Part shown: positions 5,018 to 39,496 of the stretch, piece by piece
Layout: every line of letters starts with the position of its first letter
Numbering within the stretch: position 1 is the stretch's first letter
Assembly: GCA_024763175.1 (NCBI GenBank)
Contig: JANTGA010000006.1
Coordinates: forward strand, 1 to 42,907
Direction of reading: 5' to 3'
Length of the DNA stretch: 42,907 bases
From: Sulfurovum sp.
Lineage (GTDB): Bacteria > Campylobacterota > Campylobacteria > Campylobacterales > Sulfurovaceae
Made by a program: the position numbers and the translations under genes
The notes under the pieces: model-generated
What the model was told of the DNA's origin: nothing
Database searches by the model: none
What the model saw: the letters and a program-made list of their open reading frames with translations, nothing else

Positions 5018-6559
5018 ATGAAGCAGGTTCCTATTATCGTATTGGATTTCGGGTCACAATATACACAACTGATCGTGAGAAAACTAAGAGAGAGTGGGGT
5101 CTACTGCGAAGTCGTTCCCTATCGGGAAGAGATCGAAGCGATCAAAGCCAGAGCACCCAAAGGCATCATCTTTTCAGGTGGGCCGGCATCGGTTTATGCC
5201 GAAGATGCATATAAACCCGATGAGGGCATCTGGAAACTGGGGCTTCCAATCCTGGGTATCTGCTATGGGATGCAGCTGATTACGCAGCACTTTGGTGGAG
5301 AAGTCATCCCTGCTGATCATCACGAATATGGCAAAGCAGAGTTGAAAATCGTCAAAGAGGATTCGCCGATCTTCAAAAATATCGAAGATCAATCGATCGT
5401 CTGGATGAGCCATGGTGACAAGGCGGAGAGGCTTCCGGATGGCTTTGAGGTGATTGGTACCAGTGAAAATTCACCTTATGCGGCCATTGCGGATGAGAAG
5501 AGACAGATCTATGCTCTCCAGTTCCATCCTGAGGTGCATCACTCTGTCGAAGGTGTCAAGCTGCTCAAAAATTTTGCCAAATATATCTGTGCTTGTGAAA
5601 GTACCTGGAATATGGGAAGTTTCGCTAAAGAGAAGATCGCAGCGATTCAAAAACAGGTCGGTGACAAAAAAGTACTCTGCGGTGTCAGCGGAGGCGTGGA
5701 TAGTTCGGTTGTTGCGGCGATGCTCCACGAAGCCCTGCCTGACGAGCAGCTGATTGCTGTTTTTGTTGATCAGGGGTTGCTGCGTAAAGATGAGGCGGAT
5801 CAGGTGAAGACGATGTTCAAAATGCTGAATATTCCTCTTATCACGATCAATGCCCAAAAAGAGTTTTTGGATAAGCTTGAGGGTATTACAGATCCTGAGC
5901 AGAAACGAAAAATCATCGGAGAGACCTTTATCGAAGTTTTTGATAGAGAGGCACAAAAACATCAAGATGTAGCTTTTCTTGCCCAGGGGACACTCTATAC
6001 CGATGTGATCGAATCCGTCTCAGTCAAAGGTCCATCCAAAACGATCAAATCGCATCACAATGTCGGCGGGCTTCCGGACTGGATGACATTCGAACTGGTC
6101 GAGCCGCTCAGGGAGATTTTCAAAGATGAGGTGCGCAAATTGGGCTTGGAGCTCGGACTCCCCAAAGATATGATCGGCAGACATCCTTTCCCCGGTCCGG
6201 GGTTGGCGATTCGGGTCATGGGAGAAGTCAATGCAGAGGCTTTGAGGCTGCTGCGCGAGTCGGATGCGATCATGCAGGAAGAGCTGAAGGCTACAGGCTA
6301 TTATGACAAAGTCTGGCAAGCTTTTACTGTGCTGCTCAATGTCCAGTCTGTCGGTGTGATGGGAGATAATCGTACGTATGACAATACTGTCTGCATCCGT
6401 ATGGTCGAATCAGTCGACGGGATGACGGCGACCTTTGCGCATATCCCCCACGATGTACTGGAGGGGATGAGTCGCCGGATTATCAACGAAATTGACGGGA
6501 TCAATAGAGTCGTCTATGATATCAGCTCCAAGCCGCCTGCCACCATAGAGTGGGAGTAG
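5018..6559 (+). CDS. guaA: GMP synthase (glutamine-hydrolysing)
   Basis: 513 aa with class I amidotransferase domain ([17 protein letters not shown]) and ATP-pyrophosphatase domain ([13 protein letters not shown]). Confidence 0.97.
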
Positions 6560-35375: not shown

Positions 35376-35999
35376 ATGGACTTACCCCGAGTTGAGAAAG
35401 AACTAAAAAAGAGAACCGCTTATCCCTATCGCTGGGGCAGAAAACAGTCGGATCGTTGGGATCAGCAAACAAATTTCATCTACACAACCTACAGTATGGC
35501 GATGCTTCTGAGAAAAACAGAGCATTTTCAGGCTGATCTGCGTGATTATGCTTTCAATCGTTGGTATAATTTTTGGTCTGCGATGGCAGTGGAGGATATT
35601 TTTGCTTCACACGAAAGGGTCGATCCCAATCGAAACAGTTATGACAAGCTGGTCGATTTCTCTATCGATCAGATTCCCTTTGATCACAAAACCTCCGTTT
35701 TCCCCAGAGGCTTCAGCCGACCATATAGCGATGCCAGGGAGCATGAGGACGCATTGATCACCTGGCTTTATGCGCACCAGAGTCAGCAGGGCCGAAAGCA
35801 TTTGAAGAACAGGCTTTTTATCATGCTCTACGATGGAGAGACGATGCAGCATTGGAAAATGAAAGCTGAAATCACACGTTTGCAGTCAGCGATAGATCAC
35901 TATGTTGCAAACTTTTCATCAAAGCAGCTATACTGTTTTGATTTTGGGGAGGGAGAGATTTTTTCGGATATGATATGGGTGACCAAAGGAGCAGGATGA
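35376..35999 (+). CDS. Unknown protein, probable PD-(D/E)XK-like restriction endonuclease
   Basis: 207 aa. VDFSIDQIPFDHKTSVFPRGF resembles a D-X(n)-(D/E)XK nuclease core. Coupled by ATGA overlap to a DNA adenine methylase. Confidence 0.55.
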   Translation: MDLPRVEKELKKRTAYPYRWGRKQSDRWDQQTNFIYTTYSMAMLLRKTEHFQADLRDYAFNRWYNFWSAMAVEDIFASHERVDPNRNSYDKLVDFSIDQIPFDHKTSVFPRGFSRPYSDAREHEDALITWLYAHQSQQGRKHLKNRLFIMLYDGETMQHWKMKAEITRLQSAIDHYVANFSSKQLYCFDFGEGEIFSDMIWVTKGAG

Positions 36000-36988
36000 A
36001 CTATATAGGATCAAAATTGAAGCTCTCTGATTTTATCGAGCAGAGTATCTGCGAGACAGTAGGAGAGATGGGAGAGGCGACTTTTTGTGATATCTTTGCG
36101 GGGACGGGGATCGTCGGCCGACGGTTTAAGAGACGGACCAAAAAAGTGATCGCCAATGATATCGAATACTATAGTTATGTCTTAAACCGGAATTATATAG
36201 GCAACACCGGAAATATGGAGCAAGCCTCCCTGCTGGAAGAACTCAACCGGACAGAGGAAACGGAGGGGTTCATCTATCGGCACTATGCACTGGGCGGTCA
36301 CGGAGAGAGGCAATACTTCAGTGATGAAAATGCCAGAAAGATTGATGCGATACGGCAGAGGATCGAAAGCTGGCGGGAAGAGGGGAGGATCGATGAGGAT
36401 CAATACTTTTTTTCCCTGGCAAGCCTGATAGAGTCAGCAGACAAAGTCGCCAATACAGCATCAGTCTATGGCGCCTATCTCAAACAGCTGAAGCGCTCAG
36501 CACAGAAGCCGCTTGTGCTGGAGGCGGCAGAATTTGAGAAAACGGGGGAGGGGCATGAGGTTTACCAGGAGGACGCCAATGAACTGATCGGTAAAATATC
36601 AGGTGATATCCTCTATCTGGACCCCCCTTACAACCAGAGACAGTACGGTGCCAACTATCATCTGCTGAATACGATTGCCCGCTATGATGCGTTCATCCCC
36701 AAAGGCAAAACCGGCTTGAGGGAGTACATCCGGTCAGACTATTGCAAGAAAGCTGTAGTCCTGGAGCGCTTTGAAGCCTTGATCAAACATGCAGATTTCA
36801 GCTATATCTTTCTGAGTTACAACAACGAGGGTTTGATGCAGTCAAGCGAGGTTGAGAAGATCATGCAAAAATATGGCCGGTATCATTTAGCCACCACCCA
36901 ATACCAGAGATTTAAAGCCGATAAGACAGAAAACCGCAACCACAAAGCCGACACTACCACCGAATATTTGCATATTTTGGTGAAATAG
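35996..36988 (+). CDS. D12-class DNA N6-adenine methyltransferase
   Basis: MNYIGSKLKLSDFI; CDIFAGTGIVGRRF; LYLDPPYNQRQYGANYHLLNTIARYD. Confidence 0.88.
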   Translation: MNYIGSKLKLSDFIEQSICETVGEMGEATFCDIFAGTGIVGRRFKRRTKKVIANDIEYYSYVLNRNYIGNTGNMEQASLLEELNRTEETEGFIYRHYALGGHGERQYFSDENARKIDAIRQRIESWREEGRIDEDQYFFSLASLIESADKVANTASVYGAYLKQLKRSAQKPLVLEAAEFEKTGEGHEVYQEDANELIGKISGDILYLDPPYNQRQYGANYHLLNTIARYDAFIPKGKTGLREYIRSDYCKKAVVLERFEALIKHADFSYIFLSYNNEGLMQSSEVEKIMQKYGRYHLATTQYQRFKADKTENRNHKADTTTEYLHILVK

Positions 36989-37001
36989 GTTGTACTGTTG
37001 G

Positions 37002-37030
37002 CTATCAGTTAACCATTGATTTTCTGATAG
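37002..37030. repeat. Inverted repeat CTATCAG...CTGATAG upstream of the sRNA promoter
   Basis: Perfect 7-bp arms, 15-nt spacer, between the methylase stop and the TATACT box. Confidence 0.6.
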
Positions 37031-37057
37031 TTAATCCTTAAGGTGTATACTACTCAC

Positions 37058-37223
37058 AAGAAAGAGAAATCTTTCAAGCGATGTCGCGAGTTTTTTTACT
37101 CCTTGTTCAAACTGTAAACCTTCCTTGTTTGCTCGCGACAATCGTAACTCCCTGAGAAGAAGCGAATTTTCATTTAGCCTTCCTTGTTGTAAATGATCTC
37201 CTTGTTTATCGCTTCTTCTTTTT
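37058..37223 (+). ncRNA. Candidate small RNA: two tandem hairpins with four UCCUUGUU motifs
   Basis: TATACT at 37046-37051. Hairpin 1 stem TGTCGCGAG/CTCGCGACA (37082-37090/37132-37140). Hairpin 2 stem GAAGAAGCGA/TCGCTTCTTC (37156-37165/37209-37218) followed by T5. TCCTTGTT at 37100, 37122, 37181 and 37199. Confidence 0.7.
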
Positions 37224-37692: not shown

Positions 37693-38346
37693 ATGAAGAT
37701 ATTATTGCTAGAGGATGATGTGATCCTTCAAGAGATCATTGAAGAGTTTTTGCTGGAGCAGGGGTACGAAGTATCGGCATTCTATGATGGAGAGAAAGCG
37801 CTGGATGCGATCGGGGATCATTTTTATGATTTGCTTCTATTGGATGTCAACGTCCCCTCTATCGACGGTTTTGAGATTTTGGCTTACCTCCGTGATATCG
37901 GCAACAGAGTACCTGCGATCTATATCACATCACTTTCGGGTATCGATGATCTCAAAAAAGGCTTTGCGCTTGGTGCCGACGACTATCTCAAAAAGCCCTT
38001 TGACCTCGAAGAGCTTCAAACCAGAATAGAACATATCGCCAAAGTCTACAACCTTGCCGATGAGATCACCTTCGATTCAATCCGATTCAATCCGAAACTG
38101 CACAAGATTTATGATGGGCAGAGAGAGATCAATATGCGGCAGAAAGAGTCTGCCGTACTGGAGTACTTCATCCGCAATCAGAGCAAAGTCATCTCCTGTG
38201 ATGAATTGATCGAAAATCTCTGGAGCGATGATCAGATCCCGACCCATGCAACGATTCGTACCTATATCAAAAACCTGAGAAGACTGTTTGACCGGGACTA
38301 TATCGAAAATATCAAAGGAGAGGGTTATCGTTTTAACATCCTATGA
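37693..38346 (+). CDS. OmpR-family response regulator
   Basis: Receiver domain MKILLLEDDVILQEII, LLLLDVNVPSIDGFEIL, KKPFDLEEL, with C-terminal winged helix. Confidence 0.93.
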   Translation: MKILLLEDDVILQEIIEEFLLEQGYEVSAFYDGEKALDAIGDHFYDLLLLDVNVPSIDGFEILAYLRDIGNRVPAIYITSLSGIDDLKKGFALGADDYLKKPFDLEELQTRIEHIAKVYNLADEITFDSIRFNPKLHKIYDGQREINMRQKESAVLEYFIRNQSKVISCDELIENLWSDDQIPTHATIRTYIKNLRRLFDRDYIENIKGEGYRFNIL

Positions 38347-39496
38347 GAGACGGGCACTCTACCGCTTTTTGGCGCTCTATCTGGGTTCTGTCTTTATTTT
38401 GCTGGCGATTATCGGTTATCTCTTTTTTGAAAACAATGTTGCGATGATGATGAGTTCGACCAAGTATGAGATGATGTATCAGGCGCGTAAAATCTCTTCA
38501 AAGATCGTCATGACAGCGATGGGAGGGGAGCGTGTCGACAAGAAGCGCTATCTGAATGATCTGGACCATCAGCGTTTCAAGGTGGGCTATTATGACAAGA
38601 GGCGGCAAAAGATCTCTGGAACGACCGAGAATTTCGAGAATTTCGACCAAAGTTTTTCGTCTGATAAAAAATCATGCTACGCAGTACTTGAGGACCCGAG
38701 TGAACATCTGGGTGTTCGCTATATCGTACTCAAGGAGAGTAATCTCTCCCGTGAGATCCACGCGATGCGGATGAAAATCGTCGGCTATCTGATCCTCTCT
38801 TTTATCTTTATGGGTGTGATTGGCTATTTTCTGGCACGTCTTTTTCTCGCACCGGTACGCCAAAAGATCGAATCACTCGACCGCTTCATCTCCGATACGA
38901 CCCACGAGCTCAATACCCCTGTCTCCGCTATCCTCATGACGATACAGACACTCAAAGGCTGCGACCCTAGAAAGCTCAAACGCCTCGAAGCGAGTGCCAA
39001 GCGTCTCAGTACGATGTATGGTTCGCTGACCTATCGTCTGGAGGAGAGAGGGAGAGAGCAGCAAGTCGAGCGGCTCTCACTCACAGAGCTCATCGAGGAG
39101 CGGGTACAGTATGCCAAAGCGTTGATCGAATCCAAAGGGCTGCGAGTTGATCTGGATCTTGATGTACTCTACGGCAGAATGGATCGTGAAAGTGCACTCA
39201 GGCTCATCGACAATCTCCTCTCCAATGCGATCAAATACAGCGACCCGGATGGCTCGATCAGGATTGTCGCCAAAAAGAGTCGTCTGATCGTCGAAGATGA
39301 GGGTGTCGGGATCGATGAAGCGGCCCAAAAAGATATCTTCAAGCGCTACAAGCGTGCCAACAAAGAACGCGGCGGTTTCGGTATCGGACTGGATATTGTA
39401 CTGTCGATCTGCAAACGCTATGGGATCAAGATCAAATCGGAGTCGCAGAAGGGAAAGGGAAGCCGCTTTATACTTATGTTTCCCAATGGCACATAG
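38288..39496 (+). CDS. Sensor histidine kinase
   Basis: Two TM helices; SDTTHELNTPVSAILMTIQTL H-box; LLSNAIKYSDPDGSI; VEDEGVGIDEAAQKDIFKRYKR; GGFGIGLDIV. Exact start uncertain. Confidence 0.9.
   Translation: MTGTISKISKERVIVLTSYERRALYRFLALYLGSVFILLAIIGYLFFENNVAMMMSSTKYEMMYQARKISSKIVMTAMGGERVDKKRYLNDLDHQRFKVGYYDKRRQKISGTTENFENFDQSFSSDKKSCYAVLEDPSEHLGVRYIVLKESNLSREIHAMRMKIVGYLILSFIFMGVIGYFLARLFLAPVRQKIESLDRFISDTTHELNTPVSAILMTIQTLKGCDPRKLKRLEASAKRLSTMYGSLTYRLEERGREQQVERLSLTELIEERVQYAKALIESKGLRVDLDLDVLYGRMDRESALRLIDNLLSNAIKYSDPDGSIRIVAKKSRLIVEDEGVGIDEAAQKDIFKRYKRANKERGGFGIGLDIVLSICKRYGIKIKSESQKGKGSRFILMFPNGT

What the first reader, a model, noticed from the sequence alone, without database searches (positions are those of the whole stretch)
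37058..37223. Candidate small RNA with duplicated hairpins and four UCCUUGUU (anti-Shine-Dalgarno-like) motifs
Between the methylase and the chorismate mutase the sequence forms two successive hairpins with the same design. Each has a long outer stem (TGTCGCGAG/CTCGCGACA; GAAGAAGCGA/TCGCTTCTTC), a short inner A/T stem (TTTAC/GTAAA; TCATTTA/TAAATGA), one UCCUUGUU in the terminal loop and one in the 3' side of the internal loop. The flanks swap: hairpin 1 has CTCCTTGTT then CCTTCCTTGTT, hairpin 2 has CCTTCCTTGTT then CTCCTTGTT. A TATACT box lies about 30 nt upstream of the first stem and T5 follows the second. UCCUU matches the anti-SD core, so the RNA could pair with AAGGA ribosome-binding sites. 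Tandem hairpins with anti-SD loops are known in other phyla (alphaproteobacterial cuckoo-type sRNAs), but I do not recognise this sequence. On the opposite strand the motif reads AACAAGGA, a CsrA-like GGA site, so strand matters.
Basis: partly seen in the sequence, partly recalled or inferred. Interest (0 to 1): 0.85.

Follow-up and report, generated by a model that had tools for sequence, protein, structure and literature searches.

The report
Multi-copy anti-ribosome-site small RNA family
The window carries one copy of a previously undescribed, multi-copy small regulatory RNA family of Sulfurovum-like bacteria, whose hairpin loops repeat a sequence that can pair with ribosome-binding sites, and one branch of the family sits right behind the ribosomal RNA genes.

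Summary
No RNA data exist. The element is one of 91 non-identical copies in Sulfurovaceae: 50 of 175 family genomes at E<=1e-4, 1 to about 6 copies each, and only 2 of 87 genera order-wide. Loops are conserved while outer stems change and stay paired (93% paired against 54% when arms are swapped). Strand is settled as +: a conserved -10 box lies behind 11-bp phased direct repeats of OmpR/PhoB-type architecture, and a terminator-like hairpin follows. Subtype A (the window) stands alone; subtype B often lies about 150-400 nt behind 5S rRNA. The genomes tested lack CsrA and Hfq, so a CsrA sponge on the opposite strand is excluded. No Rfam family matches. Most likely function: a trans-acting RNA that blocks translation by pairing CUCCUUGU loops with ACAAGGAG ribosome-binding sites. 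Genes with the longest match are enriched in porins and other envelope proteins (17/26 against 10/40), including this genome's major porin, but a genome-wide energy ranking supports this only weakly. It works like alphaproteobacterial cuckoo (alpha-r14) RNAs but is not a member. New variant of a known kind.

The parts
36994..37045 (+). Upstream control region: about 11-bp phased direct repeats (TTGGCTATCA-GTTAACCATTG-ATTTTCTGATA-GTTAATCCTTAAG), response-regulator-type box
   Evidence: Aligned on the -10 box in 32 type A and 41 type B copies; information peaks every 11 bp. PWM score 50.5; no other type A site >14 in the window, 400 kb of G031, 80 chorismate-mutase loci and two G031 loci.
37046..37051 (+). 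-10 box TATACT
   Evidence: TATAMT/TACAAT at a near-fixed place in most copies.
37060..37075 (+). 5' mini-hairpin GAAAGA/TCTTTC
   Evidence: Near-invariant in 28 type A copies.
37058..37223 (+). Predicted small RNA (about 165 nt; ends inferred, not mapped)
37082..37140 (+). Hairpin 1: outer stem TGTCGCGAG/CTCGCGACA, inner stem TTTAC/GTAAA, conserved core TTTGTTTTACTCCTTGTCCAAANTGTAAACNTTCCTTGTTTG
   Evidence: Core found in 91 non-identical copies; outer stem covaries, 93% paired vs 54% with arms swapped.
37100..37107 (+). Seed 1, TCCTTGTT in the apical loop of hairpin 1 (CTTGTCC in most relatives)
   Evidence: 80 of 91 cores keep CTTGTCC.
37122..37129 (+). Seed 2, TCCTTGTT in the internal loop of hairpin 1
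   Evidence: 83 of 91 copies keep CCTTGT here.
37154..37220 (+). Hairpin 2 / terminator-like stem GAGAAGAAGCGA/TCGCTTCTTCTT with inner stem TCATTTA/TAAATGA
   Evidence: own arms longer than swapped arms in both subtypes.
37181..37188 (+). Seed 3, TCCTTGTT in the apical loop of hairpin 2
37199..37206 (+). Seed 4, within ATCTCCTTGTTT in the internal loop of hairpin 2; 11-nt match to the G000 porin ribosome-binding site
37219..37223 (+). T-run after hairpin 2 (terminator-like end)
   Evidence: a T-run was scored after hairpin 2 in 13 of 31 type A copies.

Best explanation
A trans-acting small regulatory RNA, one copy of a multi-copy family restricted to Sulfurovaceae. Shown by sequence: its own promoter region behind 11-bp direct repeats, a 5' mini-hairpin, and two hairpins whose stems change freely but stay paired while unpaired CUCCUUGU(CC/UU) seeds are kept. 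Inferred: a response regulator of the OmpR/PhoB type controls it, and the RNA covers AAGGA-type ribosome-binding sites, preferably ones extended to ACAAGGAG, so that ribosomes cannot start. Likely targets, with lower confidence (about 0.35), are mRNAs of porins and other envelope proteins. Several copies and several seeds per RNA would give dose and multi-target action without Hfq.
For: Relatives in 50 of 175 family genomes at E<=1e-4, all in two genera (order-wide check). Conserved loops and 5' hairpin. Hairpin-1 stem of 44 distinct arm pairs 93% paired against 54+-2.6% with 3' arms shuffled, and all 8 positions show double changes; own arms also exceed swapped arms in hairpin 2. Conserved promoter with 11-bp repeats, nearly exclusive to these loci in 1.95 Mb of held sequence. 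No long complement to 16S/23S/5S, at most 7 nt. Genes with AAACAAGGAGA before ATG: 1-4 per genome; 17/26 exported against 10/40 with control extensions, nominal one-sided p = 0.0013; they include the major porin in G000, G092, G093 and G149, and FadL in G113 and G149. Loop of hairpin 2 to G000 porin site -16.1 kcal/mol, against -8.3 for the 16S tail.
Against: No transcript data. ACA before AAGGA is not enriched among ribosome-binding sites in 400 kb of G031 (6.7% vs 10.3% background), and GGACAAGGA-ATG is no commoner than its reversed control. Genome-wide duplex ranking is weak: G092 top 60 has 18 exported against 10.8 expected, but a generic anti-SD separates exported from other genes at least as well; G031 shows nothing. 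Porin sites read ACAAGGAG in relatives without the RNA too, so co-evolution is not shown. The envelope-target test was refined after seeing part of the data and uses a home-made signal-peptide rule.
Confidence: 0.62

Rival explanations
1. Protein-binding decoy RNA: the repeated UCCUUGU motifs in loops titrate an RNA-binding protein, as CsrB does for CsrA, rather than pairing with mRNAs.
For: Four near-identical motifs in single-stranded positions of one RNA, the CsrB/RsmZ design; conservation of flanking CCAAA beyond the anti-SD core.
Against: No CsrA or Hfq in 10 genomes tested; no known protein with this specificity (own knowledge); the motif is exactly the complement of ribosome-binding sites.
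Confidence: 0.13
2. rRNA-coupled element: the family is first of all part of stable-RNA operons (type B behind 5S), made by read-through and reporting growth rate, the stand-alone copies being derived.
For: 18 of 50 type B copies lie within 1 kb behind 5S, and a further 20 sit less than 500 nt from a contig end; E. coli RrA/B/F sit in the same place (PMC8144298).
Against: Type B copies keep their own -10 box and direct repeats; type A copies, including the window's, are not 5S-linked (0 of 32).
Confidence: 0.12
3. RNA sponge for another small RNA that carries AAGGA/ACAAGGA loops.
For: Repeated short seeds suit titration as well as mRNA pairing (inference).
Against: No partner RNA was seen; the Rfam gathering scan of 121 kb around copy loci found only rRNA, tRNA and one riboswitch.
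Confidence: 0.06
4. Not an RNA gene but a structural DNA repeat (REP- or terminator-like intergenic palindrome).
For: Intergenic hairpins, several copies per genome; some type B stems are A/T-flanked on both sides.
Against: Low copy number (1 to about 6), conserved unpaired loops, conserved -10 box and 11-bp repeats, one-sided conservation.
Confidence: 0.04

Closest known systems
alpha-r14 / cuckoo RNA family of Alphaproteobacteria (e.g. NfeR1; PMC10746234)
   Same: Tandem hairpins, identical anti-SD motif in the unpaired part of each, stems that differ greatly in sequence; sibling copies in a genome.
   Different: Motif UCCUUGU, not CCUCCUCCC; two hairpins with two motifs each plus a 5' mini-hairpin instead of three hairpins; different phylum; no Hfq in the genomes tested; one branch tied to rRNA operons.
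E. coli RrA/RrB/RrF (PMC8144298)
   Same: Small RNAs located directly behind 5S in rRNA operons (compare type B).
   Different: Those are made by read-through between two terminators and bind CsrA and Hfq; the Sulfurovaceae ones keep their own promoter, have no CsrA or Hfq partner, and carry anti-SD loops.
Envelope-regulating sRNAs: NikS/HPnc4160 of H. pylori (PMC8035401), VrrA of Vibrio cholerae (PMC2628432), MicA/RybB (own knowledge)
   Same: Possible function: repression of outer-membrane protein mRNAs; VrrA does not stringently need Hfq; NikS is in the same phylum.
   Different: No sequence or structural relation known; other regulators; the target set here is a prediction.
Neisseria meningitidis sibling sRNAs (PMC5362039)
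   Same: Sibling sRNA copies in one genome; anti-SD is mentioned in that paper (abstract and term counts only).
   Different: Different phylum; details not compared here.

Membership tests
alpha-r14 / cuckoo RNAs | Ultraconserved CCUCCUCCC motif in each hairpin | tested here: not met
   Motif is UCCUUGU; definition from PMC10746234.
alpha-r14 / cuckoo RNAs | Tandem hairpins with conserved unpaired motif and variable stems | tested here: met
   Two hairpins (the cuckoo definition has three); stems covary, loops conserved.
Any Rfam 15 family | Score above the family's gathering threshold | tested here: not met
   Best 20.6 bits against a threshold of 100 in the window; no family at the copies in related genomes.
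CsrB/RsmZ-type CsrA sponges (opposite strand) | Presence of CsrA in the genome | tested here: not met
   PF02599 in 0 of 10 genomes, with positive controls.
CsrB/RsmZ-type CsrA sponges (opposite strand) | Promoter for the GGA strand | tested here: not met
   The conserved -10 box and repeats belong to the UCCUU strand.
RrA/B/F-like rRNA-operon sRNAs | Located behind 5S in the rRNA operon | tested here: inconclusive
   Met by 18 type B copies, not by type A nor by the window copy.
RrA/B/F-like rRNA-operon sRNAs | Transcribed as part of the rRNA primary transcript | not testable with these tools
   No RNA data; type B copies have their own -10 box.
Hfq-dependent trans-acting sRNAs | Hfq present | tested here: not met
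   PF17209 in 0 of 10 genomes.
Trans-acting, mRNA-pairing sRNAs in general | Demonstrated base pairing with a target mRNA | not testable with these tools
   Only predicted complementarity.

The most novel reading that the evidence does not exclude
A Hfq- and CsrA-free regulatory circuit in which a response regulator and rRNA-operon position together set the dose of an anti-Shine-Dalgarno RNA, so that ribosome synthesis is coupled to repression of porin and other envelope mRNAs across Sulfurovaceae.
Probability: 0.2. Interest if true: 0.82.

Novelty: new variant of a known kind. Interest (0 to 1): 0.64.

Why it matters
Campylobacterota small RNAs are known mainly from Helicobacter and Campylobacter; their free-living, sulfur-oxidising relatives are nearly blank. 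This is an RNA family supported by covariation, with a dedicated promoter, in genomes where neither Hfq nor CsrA was found, in which anti-SD loops seem to have been reached independently of the alphaproteobacterial cuckoo RNAs, and of which one branch is anchored behind rRNA genes. It gives a ready test of how multi-seed RNAs work without Hfq and whether ribosome supply and envelope synthesis are linked by RNA.

Tried and rejected
Opposite-strand CsrA sponge: rejected, no CsrA. Pairing with rRNA: at most 7 nt of complement in 16S/23S. Linkage to chorismate mutase: none of 80 relatives' chorismate-mutase loci carries the element. Long loop-1 target GGACAAGGA near ATG: no excess over control. 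Global ACA-extension of ribosome-binding sites: not enriched. Virus-borne copies: three exact hits in viral contigs looked like chance matches, without the hairpins. RNAalifold on the MAFFT alignment found only the 5' hairpin because variable stems were misaligned; anchored arm-swap tests were used instead. Promoter search for other regulon members found no convincing protein gene in the 1.95 Mb held. Two literature searches for Sulfurovum or rRNA-linked epsilonproteobacterial sRNAs gave nothing on this family.

Full report
What is there. The + strand fold contains both hairpins (-48.5 kcal/mol, z = -4.3, no shuffle as stable); the minus strand is less unusual. No Rfam family comes near its threshold.

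It is a family. The window's genome has a second copy (G000:C130, L009), and DNA similarity alone found copies in several relatives. A sequence-only model of the loop core (R1, built without the outer stems) found matches at E<=0.01 in 63 of 175 genomes of the family, 50 of them at E<=1e-4 by my count of the listed rows, in two genera with 1 to about 6 copies each. In an even draw of 399 genomes of the order it was found, at E<=1e-4, in 2 of 87 genera only, the same two. Fetched loci gave 91 non-identical copies.

Anatomy. Type A (33 copies; the window, L009 and others): -10 box; near-invariant 5' mini-hairpin AAGAAAGA..TCTTTC; hairpin 1 with conserved core TTTGTTTTACTCCTTGTCCAAANTGTAAACNTTCCTTGTTTG; and in most copies a terminator-like hairpin 2 of the design GAAGCGAC-TTTTTCATAT-TTCCTTG-ATATGA-TCTCCTTGTTT-ATCGCTTC. 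Type B (50 copies): a longer outer stem of the kind AGAAAAGGCAGCC..GGCTGCCTTTT, then an AGAAGAGCC..GGCTCTTC hairpin. Eighteen type B copies have a 5S gene within 1 kb upstream on the same strand (core 145 to about 420 nt behind the 5S end); 20 more are within 500 nt of a contig end, so their upstream side cannot be seen; 12 are not 5S-linked. None of 32 type A copies with enough upstream sequence is 5S-linked. Eight copies were not assigned; in G031 and G094 one lies before ubiX, in G094 also behind three tRNA genes.

Structure is conserved as RNA. Swapping 3' arms between copies shortens the best hairpin-1 stem from 8.1 to 6.1 bp (sd 0.15). In 44 distinct arm pairs 93% of positions pair against 54+-2.6% in 1000 shuffles (maximum 62.8%), and all eight positions show double changes. 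Hairpin 2 behaves alike: type A 9.9 vs 8.1, type B 8.8 vs 7.4. In one search arms were anchored on the best stem, so the observed value leans upward; the same search was applied to the swapped arms, which removes that bias.

Strand and control. Aligning copies on the -10 box uncovers 11-bp phased repeats (gTTAtCCATy-gTTAAcCATy-aTTTTCCAA in type A; TTTACNCYYA-TTAACNCYYA in type B). This is the layout bound by OmpR/PhoB-type response regulators (established knowledge of that family; the regulator here is not identified). In 1.95 Mb held, such promoters are almost only in front of these RNAs; several entries first counted as 'other' are themselves copies. This fixes the + strand.

CsrA and Hfq. 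Neither PF02599 nor PF17209 was found in ten family genomes (controls positive), which removes the opposite-strand CsrA idea and the usual chaperone.

What it could bind. The invariant part UCCUUGU is complementary to ACAAGGA, i.e. a Shine-Dalgarno core with ACA before it. rRNA offers at most 7 nt. Genes with RACAAGGAG before ATG looked rich in envelope proteins (27 of 57, against 3 of 19 and 7 of 21 for one-base control extensions; pooled p = 0.03). For the 11-nt match AAACAAGGAGA to hairpin 2 of type A, 16 genomes hold 1-4 sites each before an ATG; 17 of 26 genes are exported against 10 of 40 controls (one-sided p = 0.0013) and 14 of 38 AGGAG genes of G031 (p = 0.023). They include the major porin of the window's own genome (G000:C23), for which the loop pairs at -16.1 kcal/mol against -8.3 for the 16S tail. 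Cautions: the hypothesis was formed on overlapping data; the signal-peptide rule is home-made; strong ribosome-binding sites are themselves commoner on exported genes; porin sites read ACAAGGAG also in genomes without the RNA; G092's own type A copy lacks the hairpin-2 match; and a genome-wide energy ranking gave a weak signal in G092 and none in G031. So the pairing mechanism is likely, the envelope target set only possible.

Comparison. The design matches alpha-r14/cuckoo RNAs (identical anti-SD motif in the unpaired part of each hairpin, stems free to vary; PMC10746234), but motif, number of hairpins and phylum differ, so it is not a member. Position of type B matches E. coli RrA/B/F (PMC8144298), which however depend on read-through and bind CsrA and Hfq. 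If porins are targets, function would resemble NikS (PMC8035401) or VrrA (PMC2628432, abstract).

Verdict. A real, undescribed (not in Rfam 15, nothing in the papers searched), multi-copy small RNA family; a variant of the anti-SD multi-hairpin kind. Shown: family, structure, promoter, strand, rRNA linkage of part of type B, absence of CsrA/Hfq in the genomes tested. Inferred: transcription, response-regulator control, translation block, envelope targets.

Noticed in passing
G031, G092, G094, G100, G124 (L123, L125, L126, L128, L129, L130, L137): Type B copies lie directly behind 5S of rRNA operons on the same strand; G124 has copies behind at least three operons, and L130 shows a further degenerate copy at 5430 with the same repeats.
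   Followed up: partly
36994-37051: 11-bp direct-repeat promoter nearly exclusive to these RNA genes; an OmpR-type response regulator and a histidine kinase lie nearby at 37693-39496, but no link was tested.
   Followed up: partly
35376-36988: A D12-class adenine methyltransferase (PF02086) overlapping the end of a 207-aa ORF without Pfam match, possibly the partner nuclease of a restriction-modification pair.
   Followed up: no
L369, L377 and orthologues: Major porin-like family (MKKTLLLSVVASTMIMAGGDIAPVEP..) without Pfam match in the one member scanned; its leader AAACAAGGAGATTACA-ATG is conserved across Sulfurovaceae genera, also where the RNA is absent.
   Followed up: partly
L130:7131-7209: c-di-GMP-I riboswitch in a Sulfurovaceae genome near a type B copy.
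   Followed up: no
L273 (G092) and a G031 gene: A longer chorismate-mutase-like protein (MTLDELREKIDHIDDTLLKLYNERMELVHQVGELKN..) ranks high as a predicted target in both genomes.
   Followed up: no
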